50,278 nucleotides of DNA from an uncultured Alphaproteobacteria bacterium. Its GTDB lineage: Bacteria > Pseudomonadota > Alphaproteobacteria > VGEJ01. The DNA lies in NCBI GenBank assembly GCA_913041535.1, contig CAJWJK010000005.1, forward strand, positions 72,984 to 123,261. Direction: 5' to 3'. This document shows positions 28,351 to 36,842 of this stretch, one piece after another. The notes below the pieces were generated by a model. It was not told where the DNA came from and searched no databases. It was given only the letters and a program-made list of their open reading frames with translations. The position numbers were made by a program, and so were the translations under genes. The stretch's first letter is position 1. The number at the start of each line of letters is the position of its first letter.

Positions 28351-29760
28351 CTATAACTTTGGCCCAATCATGCGCTCGGGTCGAACAAGTCTGTCAAACT
28401 CATCTTCTGTCACAAACCCAAGCGTAAGGGCTGCTTCTCGAAGTGTGGTGCCATCTTCATGGGCCTTTTCTGCAGCTTTCGCTGCATTGTCATATCCTAT
28501 ATGCGGTGCAAGTGCAGTAACTAGCATTAGAGACTGTTTCATAAGCTGATCAATGCGGGCCTGATTGGGTCTAATTCCAACGATGCAATGCTCAGTAAAG
28601 CTTTTAGAGCTATCGGCGAGTAGGCGTATAGATTGCAAAAGGTTGTATGCCAGTATTGGCTTAAACACATTGAGTTCCATATGACCGTTGGATCCAGCTA
28701 TGGTTATAGCGACATTGTTGCCCATAACCTGTGTGCATACCATGGTCATCGCTTCGCATTGAGTTGGGTTAACCTTGCCGGGCATTATTGACGAGCCTGG
28801 CTCATTTTTAGGCAAACTTAGTTCCCCTAAACCAGACCTTGGCCCTGAGCCAAGAAGCCGAATATCGTTTGCTATTTTCATAAGGCTGGATGCAATAGTA
28901 TTAAGAGCACCGGACATTTCTACAATGGCGTCATGGGCAGCAATAGCCTCAAATTTGTTGGGGGCAGAAGAAAATGGAAGGCCAGTAATTGACGAGATCT
29001 CGGCCGCAACCCTTTTATCAAATCCAAGCTTGGTATTGAGGCCGCTGCCTACTGCGGTGCCGCCTTGAGCGATTTGGTGCAGGGACGGAAGTGCTCGCTC
29101 TATTCGGCTAATGCCGTTTCTGATCTGAGTGGCATATCCAGAGAACTCTTGACCGAGAGTGAGGGGTGTAGCGTCCTGAAGATGTGTTCGCCCAATCTTT
29201 ATGATGTTTCTCCATTCATCTGCCTTCTTTATGAGGGCATCGTACAGCGAATTGAGTTTGGGCATTAGTTCGTGCTGTGTTTGCTCTGCTGCTGCAATAT
29301 GCATTGCGGTAGGAAAAGTATCGTTTGAGGATTGTCCCATGTTTACATGGTTATTTGGATGAACGGGTGTTTTGGAGCCAAGATCGCCGCCAAGTATCTC
29401 AATAGCGCGATTTGCAATCACTTCGTTGACATTCATATTTGATTGCGTGCCGGATCCAGTCTGCCAAACGACAAGTGGAAAATTATCATTAAGGTTGCCT
29501 TGTATAACTTCATCGGCAGCGCTGGCAATCGCATCCCGAAGGTTAGGGCCGAGATAACCAAGTTCTGCATTAACAACGGCTGCCGCACGTTTCACGATAG
29601 CTAGTCCACGTATGATAGGGAAGGGCATAAGTTCGTAGCCAATATTAAAATTACCTATGCTGCGCTGTGTTTGAGCTCCCCAATACTTGTTTGCCGGCAC
29701 TTGTATTGACCCAAATGTGTCTGTTTCCGTGCGTGTCCCTCTAGCGGTATCATTCTCCAT
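28351..29760 (-). CDS. fumC: Class II fumarate hydratase FumC
   Basis: FumC interconverts fumarate and L-malate in the citric acid cycle and, unlike class I fumarases, needs no iron-sulfur cluster. The 469-residue protein has the superfamily signature [17 protein letters not shown] near residue 320, which includes the flexible catalytic-serine loop. It also has [38 protein letters not shown] and [19 protein letters not shown], all substrate-site segments. Length is as in E. coli FumC (467). It sits 38 bases downstream of sspB and 24 upstream of the ribbon-helix-helix gene. Confidence 0.97.
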
Positions 29761-29798: not shown

Positions 29799-30281
29799 TC
29801 ATTTCTTTCGGAATTCGTTGAGATTAACAATATCAGCCTTTGCGGTCATCTTTTCAAAAGTTTGTTGGCGTTTATCAGTCCCAACAGAGGCCTTTGACAC
29901 TTCCCGTTTATTATCTGCTGTTTCTTCGGGTGGTCCGAATTGGAGTCCAAATTGGGCGCTGGGGTCGGCAAAGGTTGTTATAGCCATGAACGGGACAAAG
30001 ATACGTTCATCAACAGCGTTAAAGCGGAGTTTTACCTGGAATCCATGATCTGCGACTTCTAGATCCCAAAACTGATGCTGTAGAACTATAGTCATCGACG
30101 AAGGATGGTGCTCCTTAAGGCGCTCAGACAACAGGGATTCTGCGTCATCTGTGCGGAATGAAATGTAGAAGTGTTGGTCACCAGAAAGGCCATATTCTTG
30201 TACTTGGACCAAAATGTCCTTAACAACAGATCGCAAAGCATCTTCGACAATCGATGTGTAGTTGACGGGATGATTTTCCAT
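29799..30281 (-). CDS. sspB: ClpXP adaptor protein SspB (alphaproteobacterial type)
   Basis: SspB binds ssrA-tagged proteins and delivers them to ClpXP. The 160-residue product has a folded N-terminal domain (about residues 1-115; landmarks HFYISFRTDD, SMTIVLQHQFWDLEV, LRFNAVDERIFVPFMAITTF), a charged linker, and a short C-terminal tail, ADIVNLNEFRKK, which fits the ClpX-binding motif position in SspB proteins. The gene lies about 65 bases downstream of ssrA on the same strand. This neighbourhood strongly supports the call. The order ssrA, sspB, fumC on the minus strand suggests shared transcription for at least sspB and fumC. Confidence 0.93.
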   Translation of the reverse strand: MENHPVNYTSIVEDALRSVVKDILVQVQEYGLSGDQHFYISFRTDDAESLLSERLKEHHPSSMTIVLQHQFWDLEVADHGFQVKLRFNAVDERIFVPFMAITTFADPSAQFGLQFGPPEETADNKREVSKASVGTDKRQQTFEKMTAKADIVNLNEFRKK

Positions 30282-30344
30282 CGCAATGGCAACCCTCGGA
30301 TGTTGTGTGTCCGACGTTGGGACAATAGTACGAAGCTCGGTACG

Positions 30345-30676
30345 GTTAAATAGGTCTCACCTTTACGCTAAGCCAAGTGGGGAGCTTCTGTTGCCCGGTG
30401 CTCCCCGAACCGCGCTCACCTATTGCTAGGCAGCAAGGCGGGCTTCGCCCGCATAGTTGTCATTGGCAGTTTTATGCCTGGTCCGATAACGGCGGTACCA
30501 TGCCGAGCGAAGACTATATCTTTAATGCGCGCGTCGATCCTGATTCGCCCCCAACAGAAGCCGCCCAAACTAGGAAAAAACCATGTCTCGGCTTATGGTG
30601 GAGGCGCCGGGTACTGCCCCCGGGTCCGCTACGCCTATTACATAAAGCGTTTATCGCTATAGTCGTTAAACGACTC
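30345..30676 (-). ncRNA. ssrA: Two-piece (circularly permuted) tmRNA gene
   Basis: Read on the minus strand, an acceptor piece (about 30676 to 30596) ends in CGCCTCCACCA, and a coding piece (30552 to about 30345) begins GGGGGCG. The two ends form a 7-bp acceptor stem with a G-U third pair, the alanine identity element. The acceptor piece has a 5-bp T-stem CCGGG/CCCGG with a 7-base loop GGCAGTA. The coding piece holds the tag, a 7-bp hairpin (30379-30385 with 30400-30406) and a 7-bp outer pair AATAGGT/ACCTATT ending at 30349. Pieces are separated by a 43-base segment, 30553-30595, which itself forms a 6-bp stem. This permuted layout is established for Alphaproteobacteria. The outer ends are estimates. 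Confidence 0.93.
30426..30467 (-). other. tmRNA tag reading frame, ANDNYAGEARLAA-stop
   Basis: From the resume codon GCC at 30467 the frame reads ANDNYAGEARLAA then TAG (30428-30426). With the alanine on the tmRNA the tag is AANDNYAGEARLAA. The first residues AANDNY match the SspB-binding part and the final LAA matches the ClpX degron. Six bases of GCGGGC and GCCCGC around a GAA loop form a perfect hairpin inside the tag frame. Confidence 0.93.
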
Positions 30677-30680
30677 CTAC

Positions 30681-30709
30681 AATATAGCTATATAAGAAAG
30701 GCTTTTGAA
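30681..30709 (-). promoter_or_regulatory. Candidate ssrA promoter
   Basis: On the minus strand, TTCAAA (30709-30704) and TATATT (30686-30681) are spaced by 17 bases. Transcription would begin near 30674-30676, just before the acceptor piece. The -10 is close to consensus and the -35 has three of six. Confidence 0.55.
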
Positions 30710-30804
30710 GTGTTGATGGCAAATTGTATTTAATAATTGTTTGTTGCTGGTGGCCGCTCCCTCGTAAATGTAAAGTATACTTCTTCTTAACATGTCGGTA
30801 GCAG

Positions 30805-31743
30805 ATGACTGTCAATTCGGATCAGAACGCAGAGATTGAGGCTCAGAGGTCAGCTGCGCAGCCTACGCGCAGGGTCGTAGCTAAAGGGCTTGAAGAAATT
30901 CTTTACCAGATAGTTCCTGTGTTAGATCACGGATTTATCAGAGTAATTGACTATATGGGTGATGACTCGGCAATCGTGCAGGCAGCGCGGGTATCCTATG
31001 GTCGTGGCACCAAACGAGTGAGTGAGGATAGGGGGCTGATACGTTATCTCATGCGGCACCGACACACGACACCATTCGAAATGTGTGAGATAAAGTATCA
31101 CTGTAAACTTCCTATTTTTGTGGCCCGACAGTGGATCCGTCACCGTACTGCGAACGTTAATGAGTATTCAGCTCGGTATTCGATTTTGGACAATGAATTC
31201 TATATTCCTAATGCTGAGCATCTTGCGTCGCAGTCAGATGCTAATCGTCAAGGGCGTTCAGGAGTATTGGAGGGTGAGGAAGCACAAAGAGTTCTTCATC
31301 TGCTTCGGGATGATGCGGAGAATGCATATATGCACTACGCAGAAATGCTCAACGAGAATTCCCAGGAGCAAAAGCCCTATCCCGAGAGAAGTGGGTTGGC
31401 GAGGGAATTAGCAAGGATGAATCTTTCGCTTAATTTTTACACCCAATGGTATTGGAAAATTGACCTCCAAAATCTTATGCATTTTTTGGAACTTCGAGCT
31501 GATCCTCATGCCCAGTACGAGATTCGAGCGTACGCTGACGCTATGCTAGAAACGATTCGACATTGGGTCCCTCACACTTTTCAGGCTTTCATGGATTATG
31601 GAATCGGTGGCGTGCGGTTATCGTCCGGTGCCTTAGAGATTGTTAAGCGCCTTATCAACGGAGAATCGGTAAGTCGGGAGGATACAGACCTTTCGGCAAG
31701 AGAGTGGAGTGAATTGATGGCCATACTAGGTATAGAAACATAG
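30805..31743 (+). CDS. thyX: FAD-dependent thymidylate synthase ThyX
   Basis: ThyX methylates dUMP to dTMP using FAD, NADPH and methylenetetrahydrofolate, replacing the ThyA reaction. The 312-residue product carries the defining motif [11 protein letters not shown] (about nt 31137-31169), matching RHR followed seven residues on by Ser. [15 protein letters not shown] and [20 protein letters not shown] are further family regions. The first 30 residues ([19 protein letters not shown]) are likely disordered. ATG 30805 is the start. The gene is on its own between the minus-strand ssrA and mrp. The finding implies a folate and thymidylate economy like other ThyX users; thyA may be absent, but this window cannot show that. 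Confidence 0.96.
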
Positions 31744-31767: not shown

Positions 31768-32886
31768 TTATTCTACAATAATGCGAGGAGTCGATTTCGT
31801 CGTAGCCTCCACTGCCGCATCAATCTGACGGCATAAATTAGTAGCAATACTGCAGTAAGCTCCAGCTTCAATCGAGTCTGGTTGAGTGGCTACAATCGGC
31901 TGACCTGAGTCTGATGTTTCGCGGATAGAGAGGTGTAGAGGAATTTCTCCTAGGAATTGCGCTTTAAACTCATCTGCCAGTGTTCTAGCACCACCATGAC
32001 CAAATATTTCCGATCTAGTGCCACATGAGGGACAAAGGTAAAAACTCATATTTTCTACAATTCCAAGCACTGGCACATTAACCTTGGAGAACATGTTCAT
32101 TCCTTTGCGAACGTCGGAAAGCGCCACATCTTGTGGTGTTGAGACAATTATTGCTCCTGTTAGGGGGACGCGCTGACACAGAGTCAACTGAGCATCCCCG
32201 GTGCCGGGAGGAAGATCTATAACGAGCACATCGAGAGGACCCCAGTTTACATCACGCAAAAGTTGCTCTATGGCACTCTGGACCATTGGACCGCGCCAAA
32301 TCATGGGTGTGTCATTTGGTACTAGGTATCCGATTGACATGGTGACTATGCCAAAACCAGTTAAGGGCTCAATCATTTTTTTCTCGTTAGACGTGGGCTT
32401 TTGGTCAATTCCCATCATACGGGGTATGCTTGGCCCGTAGACGTCGGCGTCTAACAGGCCGATGGTAAGGTCAAGTTTGGATAGAGCTAGCGCTAGGTTG
32501 ACGGCCGTTGTAGATTTTCCAACACCACCTTTAGCCGATGCCACTGCTACAATTGCCTTGATGTTTGGAATGTTTTCCCCTTTTAGTGTGCGCTTTTGAT
32601 CTTTTGAGGATGGTAAACCCGGGGATTGTTTGTGCGCAGTCAACACCGCAGTAACTGATAATGCTTCTGGGATGGCCATTACGGCTTGTTCGCATGCTTG
32701 CCGCAATGGTTCTTTATCTGCACCTACATCTGACGGAACTTCGATAGCAAAGAAAACATTCCCATTCTTAATAACTAAACCTGTGATCATGCCGCTACTG
32801 ACAACATCCGACTCTCTGTGGGAGTCGTGCACGTCGCGTAGCGCGTTTAGAACACTTTCTTCACTTAACTGTGACACATCGAGCAC
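31768..32886 (-). CDS. mrp: Iron-sulfur cluster carrier protein Mrp/ApbC
   Basis: Mrp-type ATPases carry or transfer iron-sulfur clusters to apo-proteins in the cytosol. The 372-residue protein has a DUF59-like N-terminal domain (about residues 1-90), the deviant Walker A loop ASAKGGVGKSTTAVNLA (about 112), LLDADVYGPSIPRM, LIDLPPGTGDAQLT (Walker B region) and the cluster-binding pair YLCPSCGTRSE (about 285). A C-terminal region with FLGEIPLHLSIRETSDSGQP closes the family profile. It diverges from hflK, with the shared promoter region between 32887 and 33051. Confidence 0.94.
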   Translation of the reverse strand: MLDVSQLSEESVLNALRDVHDSHRESDVVSSGMITGLVIKNGNVFFAIEVPSDVGADKEPLRQACEQAVMAIPEALSVTAVLTAHKQSPGLPSSKDQKRTLKGENIPNIKAIVAVASAKGGVGKSTTAVNLALALSKLDLTIGLLDADVYGPSIPRMMGIDQKPTSNEKKMIEPLTGFGIVTMSIGYLVPNDTPMIWRGPMVQSAIEQLLRDVNWGPLDVLVIDLPPGTGDAQLTLCQRVPLTGAIIVSTPQDVALSDVRKGMNMFSKVNVPVLGIVENMSFYLCPSCGTRSEIFGHGGARTLADEFKAQFLGEIPLHLSIRETSDSGQPIVATQPDSIEAGAYCSIATNLCRQIDAAVEATTKSTPRIIVE

Positions 32887-33051: not shown

Positions 33052-34167
33052 ATGCCGTGGAATAACCAAGGCAATGGAGGCGGTGGTGGTGACCGTGGAC
33101 CGTGGGGTCGCGGTGGCGGCCAGGGGCCGACTGGGGGCAATGGCCCTGGTGGTCAGCCCCCGGACCTTGAAGAATTGCTTCGGCGAGGTCAAGATAGATT
33201 TCGGGGTTCGGTTCCGCGTGGATTCTTTGGATTACGCGGAATTATAATAGCGGGTCTTGTAATTATCGTTCTTTGGTTGGCAAGCGGTTTCTATCGCGTT
33301 CTTCCTGATGAACAAGGTGTTGTGCTTCGGTTTGGTGAGTGGACTGCAACTACAGAACCCGGACTCAATTACCATTTACCAAGCCCGATAGAGAGTGTTC
33401 TCACTCCCCAAGTCACACGTGTCAAGCGTACCGATGTTGGATACACCTCTGGTGGTGATCGTGGTCGTGCCAATACTATTCGGGATGTGCCAGAGGAAAG
33501 TCTCATGCTTACCGGAGACGAGAACATCATAGACATTGATTTCCAGGTATTCTGGGTTATCAAAGATGCTGGTGAATTTTTATTCAACGTTGAAAACCCA
33601 GAAGCTGCAGTAAAAGCAGCTGCTGAAAGTGCGATGAGAGAGGTCGTTGGTGAAACTCCTATTCAACTTGCTTTGGCAGAGGGTCGGCAACAAGTTGAAG
33701 GGGGCACCCGTGATCTTTTGCAGGCGATTCTAGATTCCTATAAGGCAGGAATAGCCATTCGTGAAGTTAAACTGCAGAAAGTGGATCCACCAGAAGCGGT
33801 AATTGATGCATTTCGAGATGTTCAGCGTGCACGTGCTGACCTAGAACGGCAGCGGAACGAAGCCGAAGCGTATGCTAACGATGTTATTCCGCGTGCTAGG
33901 GGTGAAGCTGAACGCGTTCTTCAAGAGGCTGAGGCATACAAGCAGCAGATTGTTGCTGATGCTGAGGGTGACGCCGCGCGTTTTCTTTCGGTTTATGAGG
34001 AGTACGCGCGAGCTAAGGATGTCACGACCAAACGGATTTATTTGGAAACCATGCAAACGATTTTCGCTGGTATGAACAAGGTTATTGTGGATCCGGGCGT
34101 AGGTTCAGGGGTAGTGCCTTATCTTCCATTGCCGGAATTACGTAAGCAGACGCAGGCTGCGCCATGA
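33052..34167 (+). CDS. hflK: Membrane protease modulator HflK
   Basis: HflK forms, with HflC, an inner-membrane SPFH complex that surrounds and modulates the AAA protease FtsH. The 371-residue product has the typical Gly-, Pro- and Arg-rich N-terminus (NGGGGGDRGPWGRGGGQGP), one membrane helix at about residues 61-83, and the periplasmic SPFH/band-7 domain (VLPDEQGVVLRFGEWT, EPGLNYHLPSPIESV, LMLTGDENIIDIDFQVFW). A helical region rich in Ala, Glu and Arg follows. Start ATG 33052. hflC overlaps by four bases. Confidence 0.95.
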   Translation: MPWNNQGNGGGGGDRGPWGRGGGQGPTGGNGPGGQPPDLEELLRRGQDRFRGSVPRGFFGLRGIIIAGLVIIVLWLASGFYRVLPDEQGVVLRFGEWTATTEPGLNYHLPSPIESVLTPQVTRVKRTDVGYTSGGDRGRANTIRDVPEESLMLTGDENIIDIDFQVFWVIKDAGEFLFNVENPEAAVKAAAESAMREVVGETPIQLALAEGRQQVEGGTRDLLQAILDSYKAGIAIREVKLQKVDPPEAVIDAFRDVQRARADLERQRNEAEAYANDVIPRARGEAERVLQEAEAYKQQIVADAEGDAARFLSVYEEYARAKDVTTKRIYLETMQTIFAGMNKVIVDPGVGSGVVPYLPLPELRKQTQAAP

Positions 34168-35045
34168 GACGTTTGACGATGATTATAGCGGGCGGACTTC
34201 TACTACTGTTTGGTATAGTAACTCTTAGTTCCCTATATACGGTCCACCAGACAGAGCAGGCACTGGTGCTGCAGTTTGGAGATCCTCGTCGTGTGATTAC
34301 GGACCCTGGTTTGCATTTAAAATGGCCTTTTGTAGAAAATGTAGAGAAACTTGATCGTCGTATTCTTGGTTTTGATGCGGTGCCAGAAGAGATTATAGCA
34401 GTTGATCAGAAACGTTTGGTCGTTGATGCATTCGTTCGCTATCGCATTGTGGATCCGTTGCAATTTTATAAGGCTGTTCGTGAACAGCGAACGGCGGAGG
34501 AACGATTAAGGACACTGTTAAGTTCGAATCTGCGTCGTGTTCTAGGATCTGTTCCTTTGACTAATTTACTTACTGGTGAGCGAGCGTCTCTTATGGGTGA
34601 CATACGAGACCTGGTCAATGAACAGGCAGGAGAACTTGGTATAGAAGCGATTGATGTTCGAATTAAACGGGCAGATCTTCCCGAAGCTAACAATCAGGCA
34701 ATTTATGCGCGAATGAATACTGAGAGGGAACGTGAGGCACGTGAGTTTAGAGCTCAAGGCGCGGAAATATCTCAACGGATCCGATCGCGTGCCGATCGTG
34801 AGAAAACCGTTTTGTTGGCGGAGGCCCGCAAGCAGTCTCAGATTCTCCGTGGTCAAGGCGACGGACGACGCAATCGGATATTTGCCGATGCGTTTAGCAC
34901 CGATCCAGAGTTTTTTGCGTTCTATCGTTCAATGGAAGCATATAGAGAGGCTCTTGGTAGTAATGACACAACGTTGATTTTATCTCCCGACAGTGAATTT
35001 TTCCGTTTCTTCGGTAATCTTGATGGTGCCGAATCTAGTGAATAG
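34164..35045 (+). CDS. hflC: Membrane protease modulator HflC
   Basis: HflC is the partner of HflK in the FtsH-associated SPFH assembly. The 293-residue protein has an N-terminal membrane helix (about residues 5-26) followed by the SPFH domain: VHQTEQALVLQFGDPRRV, PGLHLKWPFVENVEKLDRR and DAFVRYRIVDPLQFYKAV. Then come the helical ALNTEREREAREFRAQG-like region and a C-terminal tail. ATG 34164 overlaps the hflK stop as ATGA, so the two subunits are made together. Length is close to E. coli HflC (334) but shorter. Confidence 0.95.
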   Translation: MRRLTMIIAGGLLLLFGIVTLSSLYTVHQTEQALVLQFGDPRRVITDPGLHLKWPFVENVEKLDRRILGFDAVPEEIIAVDQKRLVVDAFVRYRIVDPLQFYKAVREQRTAEERLRTLLSSNLRRVLGSVPLTNLLTGERASLMGDIRDLVNEQAGELGIEAIDVRIKRADLPEANNQAIYARMNTEREREAREFRAQGAEISQRIRSRADREKTVLLAEARKQSQILRGQGDGRRNRIFADAFSTDPEFFAFYRSMEAYREALGSNDTTLILSPDSEFFRFFGNLDGAESSE

Positions 35046-35119
35046 ATTCTTTACGTTGAGGTCAGTTATATCCGTATATGCGCCTCTAAGCGCTTTTGTC
35101 AGTAAACCATGAGAAACTA

Positions 35120-35308
35120 GTGAGGGAGCTAGCTCTAGCTTTAGCTCTAGTGATGGTGATCGAGGGTGCCCTCTATGCGCTGTTTCCCGCGGGTATGAGG
35201 CGTTTGATGAAATCGGTACTTAATCAATCGGAGAACTCCCTTCGCTGGACAGGCTTGGTTCTTGCCATTGCTGGGTTTACCCTAGCATGGGTGGTACGTA
35301 GAAGTTGA
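35120..35308 (+). CDS. DUF2065 family small inner-membrane protein (YjeT-like)
   Basis: A 62-residue protein with two hydrophobic helices: LALALALVMVIEGALYALF and WTGLVLAIAGFTLAWVV. This is the DUF2065 pattern, and E. coli YjeT likewise follows hflC, so context supports the name. Function unknown. I choose GTG 35120, preceded by GAGAA, which gives the usual family length. TTG 35096, in frame, would add eight residues. It lies 74 bases past hflC. Confidence 0.75.
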   Translation: MRELALALALVMVIEGALYALFPAGMRRLMKSVLNQSENSLRWTGLVLAIAGFTLAWVVRRS

Positions 35309-35375
35309 TATTTACAACGGCCTGATGGCAATTCTGTTGAGTATGTAAATTGATTAACGGAGATTTGCGTGCAAA

Positions 35376-36842
35376 ATGAAGTACCAAGAGATGAATAGTG
35401 CTCGATTTGACCGTCAGCTACTGCTGTTATGGAGCGCTGTTTTTCTAATAGCGAGTACGTTAATTTACGGTCCAGCTTGGTCGCGAGGCGCGCCAGACAG
35501 CTTTGCCGATTTGGTTGATCGGCTATCGCCGGCTGTGGTTAATATTTCGACGACACAAAAGGTCAAGTCGGGGGGAAGGACTGTCCCTTTGCCGAAGACT
35601 TCACCAGGCTCACCATTTGAAGAGTTTTTTAAGGAATTTTTTGAGGAGCGGCAATTGGAACGCTCACCAAGAAGGAACGTTACCTCTTTGGGGTCTGGTT
35701 TCATAATCGATAGTGCCGGTATCATAATTACCAACAATCACGTTATTGCCGAGGCTGATGAAATCACAGTCATCTTAAGCGATGATACAGAACTGGAGGC
35801 CGAGATTATTGGCCGTGACGAACGTACCGACCTAGCCGTTTTGAAGGTTGATGCAGAACGGGTATTACCCAGTGTACGTTGGGGGGACTCAGAATTAGCG
35901 CGAGTTGGCGATTGGGTGTTAGCAATCGGGAATCCATTTGGTCTAGGAGGTAGCGTTACAGCAGGAATCATTTCTGCACGAGGCAGAGATATTAATGCTG
36001 GGCCCTACGATGACTTCATCCAAACTGATGCGCCGATTAATAGAGGGAATTCGGGCGGCCCCCTTTTTGGAATGGATGGTTATGTTATTGGGGTTAACTC
36101 AGCAATCTTTTCACCTTCGGGTGGCAGCATAGGTATAGGATTCTCGATTCCATCCTCACTTGCTCGTCCGATAGTGGAGCAGCTTCGCAAGTATGGTCGT
36201 GTTCGTCGCGGTTGGTTAGGGGTGCGGATTCAAACTGTGACTGAAGAAATTGCTGAAGGTATGGGTCTTGATGAGGCGCGCGGGGCCCTGGTTGCAAGTA
36301 TTATCAATGAGGATGATCCAGCTCATGGGCGAATTGAGCCTGGAGATATTATTTTGAGCTTTGACGGTGTTACTATCACAGATGTTCGGTCTCTGTCCCG
36401 AACAGTAGCAGATACACCGGTTGGAAAAACCGTTAAGGTTGAGGTTTGGCGCCGTGGTTCGGAGCGCACTATATACGTTACAATTAGTGAGTTGACGGAA
36501 TCGAAGACCTTAGCCGCCGTACAATCTTCAAAGCCAGAGAGTGCAGAGATATTTGGCATGTCACTGGCCCAACTTACTGAGGGGCTACGGAGAAAATATG
36601 GTGTTTCTGATCAGATCGACGGGGTTGTTGTGACATCAGTTGATCCGAACAGTCGCACCGCTCAAAAGGGCATCCAGGAAGGTGATGTGATTACTGAAGT
36701 TAGCCAGCAGTCGGTTCGTACCCTAAGTGAGTTGATTGGCAAAATCGAAGAGGTAGAGAGAGCAAGACGTAAATCCGTAGTTCTTACTATAATTCATAGA
36801 GGAGAACTAAGATTCGTTGCAATTCGTATAGAGGGTGATTGA
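35376..36842 (+). CDS. degP: Do-type periplasmic serine protease/chaperone (DegP/MucD family)
   Basis: This HtrA-family protease degrades or refolds damaged envelope proteins. The 488-residue product starts with a hydrophobic signal segment (about residues 14-31; LLLLWSAVFLIASTLIYG). The trypsin-like domain has its triad as His122 (NNHVIAEADE), Asp152 (RTDLAVLKV) and Ser226 (GNSGGPLFG). Two PDZ domains follow (GWLGVRIQTVTEEIAEGMG and VVVTSVDPNSRTAQKGIQEG). It follows the HflKC genes, so an envelope quality-control cluster is evident, although linked transcription is not proven. ATG 35376 is the start; ATG 35391 is possible. Which of DegP, DegQ or MucD is orthologous is not decided here. Confidence 0.93.
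   Translation: MKYQEMNSARFDRQLLLLWSAVFLIASTLIYGPAWSRGAPDSFADLVDRLSPAVVNISTTQKVKSGGRTVPLPKTSPGSPFEEFFKEFFEERQLERSPRRNVTSLGSGFIIDSAGIIITNNHVIAEADEITVILSDDTELEAEIIGRDERTDLAVLKVDAERVLPSVRWGDSELARVGDWVLAIGNPFGLGGSVTAGIISARGRDINAGPYDDFIQTDAPINRGNSGGPLFGMDGYVIGVNSAIFSPSGGSIGIGFSIPSSLARPIVEQLRKYGRVRRGWLGVRIQTVTEEIAEGMGLDEARGALVASIINEDDPAHGRIEPGDIILSFDGVTITDVRSLSRTVADTPVGKTVKVEVWRRGSERTIYVTISELTESKTLAAVQSSKPESAEIFGMSLAQLTEGLRRKYGVSDQIDGVVVTSVDPNSRTAQKGIQEGDVITEVSQQSVRTLSELIGKIEEVERARRKSVVLTIIHRGELRFVAIRIEGD

What the first reader, a model, noticed from the sequence alone, without database searches (positions are those of the whole stretch)
29799..30676. ssrA and its degradation adaptor sspB are adjacent and co-oriented
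The tmRNA supplies the tag that SspB recognises (AANDNY region) and LAA that ClpX recognises; sspB begins about 65 bases after the coding piece. No clear T-run terminator is seen between them, so read-through could couple tag supply and adaptor supply. Such adjacency hints at selection on their ratio.
Basis: partly seen in the sequence, partly recalled or inferred. Interest (0 to 1): 0.55.

Follow-up and report, generated by a model that had tools for sequence, protein, structure and literature searches.

The report
Tagging RNA beside its adaptor gene
The RNA gene that tags unfinished proteins for destruction lies just before the gene for the adaptor thought to deliver tagged proteins to the protease; this order is common across Alphaproteobacteria, and the tag's adaptor-binding part tends to decay in lineages that lack the adaptor.

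Summary
A permuted alphaproteobacterial tmRNA gene (tag AANDNYAGEARLAA) and sspB lie on the minus strand, 53 nt (ARAGORN end) or 94 nt (Rfam end) apart, with no intrinsic terminator found between them; fumC follows. The order is not peculiar to this genome: among 231 SspB-bearing Alphaproteobacteria checked, 167 have ssrA directly upstream of sspB and co-oriented, and 25 more within 8 kb. None of 42 other Pseudomonadota has the pair on one contig within 8 kb.

Read-through is plausible, but a comparative terminator test vanished after G+C stratification, spacing is loose (9 to 334 nt), and an order without sspB packs fumC just as tightly behind ssrA. Selection on the ratio of tag to adaptor is not shown.

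The functional pairing gains support from tags. Of 220 tags from SspB-bearing genomes, 196 begin ANDN, against 3 of 13 from genomes without an SspB match. In one order (6 of 6 genomes) sspB is missing, ssrA abuts fumC, and the tag reads ANDDY or AK[S/R]DY with LAA kept. Some SspB-bearing lineages carry displaced or doubled ANxN motifs in longer tags. The locus is ordinary; the tag-adaptor co-variation is worth following.

The parts
30376..30713 (-). ssrA: permuted alphaproteobacterial tmRNA gene (Rfam bounds; ARAGORN gives 30335-30688)
   Evidence: RF01849 253.4 bits, RF04321 148 bits; ARAGORN tmRNA*
30426..30467 (-). tag reading frame ANDNYAGEARLAA plus stop; mature tag AANDNYAGEARLAA with the charged alanine (the added alanine is recalled from tmRNA biology)
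   Evidence: ARAGORN coding part 222-263 of the gene; sequence
30282..30375 (-). ssrA-sspB gap (Rfam end to ATG; 30282-30334 from the ARAGORN end): no terminator found on this strand, no clear promoter
29799..30281 (-). sspB: ClpXP adaptor for ssrA-tagged proteins, 160 aa, C-terminus IVNLNEFRKK (ClpX-docking role recalled, not tested)
   Evidence: PF04386 E 3.3e-37; PDB 2nys, 2qas, 2qaz
28351..29760 (-). fumC: class II fumarase, next gene downstream on the same strand
   Evidence: PF00206 and PF10415; co-oriented FumC downstream of sspB, within the 4 kb held, in 33 of 80 named loci
30805..31743 (+). thyX: thymidylate synthase, divergent on the upstream side of ssrA
   Evidence: PF02511 E 8.7e-56

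Best explanation
This is the alphaproteobacterial form of the trans-translation and ClpXP disposal pair. ssrA makes a two-piece tmRNA that adds AANDNYAGEARLAA to stalled nascent chains; the SspB encoded just downstream binds the N-terminal AANDN part and hands the protein to ClpX, which grips the C-terminal LAA (tagging and delivery inferred from the known families). The order ssrA-sspB, sometimes followed by fumC, is probably ancestral in the class (inferred from its breadth). With no terminator found in the 53-94 nt gap, some transcripts from the ssrA promoter probably run into sspB, so part of sspB expression likely depends on ssrA transcription (inferred, not shown). Selection holds the tag's ANxN epitope while SspB is present and relaxes when it is lost (supported by comparative counts).
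For: Identity. Class-wide order: 167 of 231 direct, 192 of 231 co-oriented within 8 kb; SspB on the same strand after the tmRNA in 20 of 27 further loci; 66 of 80 named loci within 300 nt. Not found outside the class in this sample: 0 of 42. No terminator found here. Estimated gaps as short as 9-18 nt in five genomes and at most 44 nt in a quarter of 162, the shortest leaving no room for a promoter between the genes. Tag: ANDN start in 196 of 220 SspB-bearing vs 3 of 13 SspB-lacking (Fisher 2.6e-7); [AVSPC]NxN anywhere in 214 of 220 vs 4 of 13 (6.8e-10). Among small genomes (<= 1.6 Mb) the motif is in 28 of 31 SspB-bearing tags vs 1 of 10 tags from three lineages without SspB (5.7e-6).
Against: Direct adjacency is absent in 64 of 231: 25 co-oriented at 0.4-8 kb, 24 on different contigs (some of them assembly breaks), 12 far or not co-oriented, 3 without a tmRNA match. 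The terminator difference is not robust to G+C. 52 of 162 paired tmRNAs do have a T-rich tail. Promoter-like sites in 17 of 110 gaps could mean that sspB has its own start. NCBIfam gave no match for this SspB. The Fisher tests ignore shared ancestry; the well-supported loss lineages number about three. G025 keeps ANDN without SspB, and so do G157 and G170, which lie in families where another genome has SspB and may be false negatives or recent losses.
Confidence: 0.72

Rival explanations
1. Passive ancestral neighbourhood: ssrA and sspB were next to each other in the ancestor and stay so by inertia. sspB has its own promoter and no shared regulation is under selection.
For: Wide spread of gap lengths, 9 to 334 nt; separations of 0.4-8 kb in 25 of 231; fumC packed 25-67 nt behind ssrA in 6 of 6 genomes of the order without sspB; promoter-like sites in 17 of 110 gaps against 0 of 90 inside tmRNA, with a failed positive control; T-rich tails in 52 of 162 paired tmRNAs.
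Against: Retention of the pair in most of 231 genomes across the class, while fumC was found downstream in only 33 of 80 named loci; gaps too short for an intervening promoter in some genomes.
Confidence: 0.4
2. Selection on a fixed tag-to-adaptor ratio through one processed transcript: tmRNA maturation releases the sspB mRNA, so one promoter sets both.
For: Conserved order and co-orientation; no terminator found in this window.
Against: tmRNA is normally far more abundant than an adaptor mRNA (recalled), so a fixed ratio would need strong partial termination or rapid decay; no terminator depletion after G+C control.
Confidence: 0.15
3. The SspB-like ORF is not a tag adaptor in this organism but a related protein with another client.
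For: Binding was not tested here; NCBIfam gave no match.
Against: Strong PF04386 match and PDB sequence matches, one of them deposited as SspB; tag motif and SspB presence co-vary over the class.
Confidence: 0.04

Closest known systems
Caulobacter crescentus tmRNA and SspB-alpha with ClpXP (Keiler 2000; Lessner 2007; recalled, seen only as references or mentions in passages of PMC8138137 and PMC8119881)
   Same: Permuted two-piece tmRNA gene, AANDN-type tag (recalled for Caulobacter), SspB of the alpha type; PDB 2qas/2qaz match here (that these two are the Caulobacter protein is recalled)
   Different: Different tag C-terminal part (EARLAA here). I could not read either paper, so whether they report the gene order is unknown to me.
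Escherichia coli ssrA, sspB and ClpXP
   Same: Same pathway logic: adaptor epitope at the tag's N-terminal side, ClpX signal at the C-terminus (tag AANDENYALAA and this division of labour in passages of PMC8138137)
   Different: tmRNA in one piece and ssrA not next to sspB (both recalled for E. coli); 0 of 42 non-alpha Pseudomonadota have the two neighbouring

Membership tests
alpha_tmRNA (RF01849), permuted tmRNA | Covariance-model match over the gathering score across the whole model | tested here: met
   253.4 bits against 50, model 1-355
alpha_tmRNA (RF01849), permuted tmRNA | Tag frame ending in a ClpX-type LAA after an ANDN start | tested here: met
   ANDNYAGEARLAA
alpha_tmRNA (RF01849), permuted tmRNA | Precursor processed into two mature pieces | not testable with these tools
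   Needs RNA
SspB (PF04386), alpha type | Domain match over the curated cut-off | tested here: met
   128.4 bits against 27; aligned with 18 relatives, 12 invariant columns
SspB (PF04386), alpha type | Binds the ssrA tag | not testable with these tools
   Only indirect: co-variation of tag motif and SspB presence
SspB (PF04386), alpha type | C-terminal ClpX-binding tail | tested here: inconclusive
   C-terminal FRKK shared with 2nys; its role is recalled, not tested
ssrA-sspB transcription unit | One transcript spanning both genes | not testable with these tools
   Sequence allows it; no RNA data

The most novel reading that the evidence does not exclude
In Alphaproteobacteria the SspB-binding epitope of the tmRNA tag is a movable module, roughly [A/V]-N-x-N, kept by selection only while SspB is encoded. 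It decays on SspB loss while the ClpX signal stays, and in several SspB-bearing lineages it has shifted inside longer tags or been doubled (for example ANDNAQFVAANDNFVVEGDIAIAA), perhaps giving bivalent tags that engage both sites of an SspB dimer.
Probability: 0.35. Interest if true: 0.6.

Novelty: new member of a known kind. Interest (0 to 1): 0.36.

Why it matters
What may matter is the by-product: lineages without sspB in which just the tag part that SspB is thought to bind has decayed, and SspB-bearing lineages with two copies of that part. Together they make the alphaproteobacterial tag-adaptor interface testable by evolution, and they mark good organisms in which to measure how much the adaptor contributes.

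Tried and rejected
Generic terminator scan (stem >= 5, loop 3-8, T-rich tail): 7 of 162 paired (shuffle rate 0.035) and 8 of 57 unpaired (shuffle rate 0.063). It misses the tmRNA's own terminal hairpin because of its large loop, so I measured T content behind that hairpin instead. The difference did not survive G+C stratification, except for one of five position bins (+7..+17, p 0.035 at GC >= 0.55).

The plus-strand ORF 30377-30733, antisense to the tmRNA, has no Pfam match: rejected as a gene.

Literature: ten searches listed no paper that, from its title and start of abstract, reports the ssrA-sspB order, its co-transcription, or tag decay on SspB loss. I saw passages only of PMC8119881, PMC11915505 (no mention of SspB), PMC8138137, PMC2704228 and PMC7804408 (says sspB is present in most Proteobacteria and absent elsewhere). 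Lessner 2007 and Keiler 2000 are not held, so the order may well be in print.

Rows dropped before counts: 35 of 266 SspB-bearing class genomes are not in the coordinate count; 27 of them were looked at through loci. Five of 167 adjacent genomes (G111, G030, G177, G079, G087) were not fetched, so gap statistics rest on 162. Three of 23 class genomes without an SspB match are not named in the output. Of the other 20, 7 had no alpha-tmRNA match and 3 only a match under the cut-off; 10 tags were used, plus 3. 28 of 223 tmRNAs had no ARAGORN tag, and 2 of 27 later ones; the tags of G157 and G170 were read from frames, as ARAGORN found no gene. One search's small-genome set has 31 ARAGORN tags of 48 genomes. 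One search was given 46 of the 72 non-alpha genomes with an SspB match.

Full report
What is there. On the minus strand of the window lie, in order, a permuted tmRNA gene (Rfam 30376-30713; ARAGORN 30335-30688, tag ANDNYAGEARLAA), sspB (29799-30281) and fumC (28351-29760); thyX (30805-31743) diverges on the plus strand. SspB matches PF04386 at E 3.3e-37 and three solved proteins, 2nys, 2qas and 2qaz. The distance from tmRNA end to the sspB ATG is 53 or 94 nt, depending on the program. No terminator-like site was found on this strand, and the terminal tmRNA hairpin is followed by ACTTGGCTTAG. The window belongs to a 2.09 Mb genome in 39 contigs.

Is the order conserved? In a class-wide draw of 289 genomes, 266 have SspB. 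For 231 of these (151 with the best SspB scores, own genome included, and 80 of the rest) I compared tmRNA and SspB coordinates (scripts 15 and 23). In 167 the tmRNA is directly upstream, co-oriented and within 400 nt of the SspB match; in 25 co-oriented at 400-8000 nt; in 24 on different contigs; in 12 far or not co-oriented; in 3 there is no tmRNA match. The lower-scoring set behaves like the top set (60 of 80 and 107 of 151 direct). Of 27 further SspB-bearing genomes with a tmRNA locus, 20 have SspB on the same strand after the tmRNA, in the 1.5 kb or less held there. Of 80 named loci (the best of at least 590 candidates, so close to the query), ARAGORN finds a tmRNA in 69, in each upstream and co-oriented, 66 of them within 300 nt; 5 of the other 11 hold under 300 nt of upstream sequence. 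Outside the class, 46 of 72 SspB-bearing Pseudomonadota were searched for tmRNA. 42 have one over the cut-off, none on the same contig as sspB within 8 kb; the closest of the 10 same-contig cases is 235.5 kb away. The arrangement thus looks old and class-wide, and this window is one more case.

Does it mean coupling? In 162 paired genomes with sequence, the estimated gap to the sspB start has median 86 nt, lower quartile 44 nt and range 9 to 334 nt. The shortest gaps leave no room for a promoter between the genes, which favours shared transcription there. Paired tmRNAs have fewer T-rich tails behind the terminal hairpin than unpaired ones (52 of 162 vs 29 of 57, p 0.016), and the difference is stronger with about one genome per family (21 of 74 vs 17 of 29, p 0.006). 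It disappears at G+C of 0.55 or more (21 of 100 vs 5 of 21) and is not significant below that (31 of 62 vs 24 of 36, p 0.14). A promoter scan gave 17 of 110 gaps at p <= 0.05 against 0 of 90 inside tmRNA, which would favour a separate sspB start, but it also gave 0 of 90 upstream of ssrA and so failed its positive control. The junction shows no unusual fold. Read-through in this window is therefore plausible and unproven, and nothing here shows selection on the ratio of tag to adaptor. A warning comes from an order in which sspB is missing (0 of 6 genomes have it). In all six, fumC follows ssrA on the same strand, 25-67 nt after the ARAGORN end if the nearest in-frame start is used. Tight packing behind ssrA is thus not special to sspB.

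Does the tag follow the adaptor? ARAGORN tags from SspB-bearing genomes begin ANDN in 177 of 195, and in 196 of 220 once 25 further genomes are added. Tags from genomes without an SspB match begin ANDN in 3 of 13. The order without sspB has ANDDYAELPLAA, ANDDYAELALAA (twice), AKRDYAEYALAA, AKSDYAEYALAA and AKSDYAEYSLAA. A second lineage (f84) has ANESYAIAA and ANESYALAA; its thyX neighbour on one side recalls the tmRNA surroundings printed for 'Candidatus Pelagibacter ubique' in PMC2704228 (passages). A third (f26) has ANDNELALAA and AKNNQLALAA. These ten tags end in LAA or IAA. Because small genomes have odd tags, I compared only SspB-bearing genomes up to 1.6 Mb: 28 of 31 with an ARAGORN tag keep [AVSPC]NxN, against 1 of 10 tags of the three lineages; an ANDN start is kept by 18 of those 31, so the looser motif carries this control. 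These counts ignore shared ancestry, and three lineages are few. Exceptions: G025 keeps ANDN without SspB; G157 and G170 keep it in families where another genome has SspB; G115 without SspB has ANQNNAFVVACNDNAPIAIAA; six SspB-bearing tags lack the motif, among them G261 (ANNYVAPRVALAA), whose SspB score is the weakest of the class draw (E 1.3e-16).

Moved and doubled epitopes. Among 30 SspB-bearing tags of 15 residues or more, 18 carry an [AVSPC]NxN after residue 4, against a mean of 3.6 and a maximum of 11 in 2000 shuffles. Examples are ANDNAQFVAANDNFVVEGDIAIAA, ANDNNAFVAANDNSVVAGEAIAA and AKTTKARRVTAANRNTVIGVRVAA. Of the five tags with two ANDN-type copies, the N-D-N codons of the copies differ by synonymous changes in three (G117, G199, G044) and are identical in two (G269, G257); the three fit selection on the peptide, the two do not exclude a DNA repeat. 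The motif was chosen after seeing the tags, ARAGORN may misplace the start of unusual tags, and several of these genomes share a family, so this is a lead and not a result.

Verdict. The co-variation of tag and adaptor is the part that deserves follow-up. Whether it is already in print I could not establish: my searches listed nothing on it, and the most relevant papers are not held.

Noticed in passing
L136, L150, L134, L188, L157 (G117, G199, G269, G257, G044): tmRNA tags with two copies of an ANDN-type motif, such as ANDNAQFVAANDNFVVEGDIAIAA; the N-D-N codons of the copies differ synonymously in three of the five and are identical in two.
   Followed up: partly
L260, L261, L262, L356, L357, L366 (one order, 6 genomes): sspB is absent, fumC follows ssrA directly on the same strand (25-67 nt), and the tag's ANDN has become ANDD or AK[S/R]D while LAA is kept.
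   Followed up: partly
window 33052-36842 (+), with 31768-32886 (-): hflK, hflC and a DegP/HtrA-type protease gene start 2.3 to 4.7 kb from ssrA, beside an Mrp/ApbC-type iron-sulfur carrier gene (just under its NCBIfam cut-off): a cluster of protein quality-control genes.
   Followed up: no
L127, L128, L042, L140 (G065, G246, G200, G106): The contig ends at or within one base of the tmRNA match, so some 'different contig' cases may be assembly breaks or integration sites.
   Followed up: no
L121, L122, L123, L124 (G275, G125, G206, G010; one family): Unpaired tmRNAs whose matched end is followed by a second copy of the terminal CAACAGAA hairpin, as if one hairpin had been duplicated or the match ended one hairpin early.
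   Followed up: no
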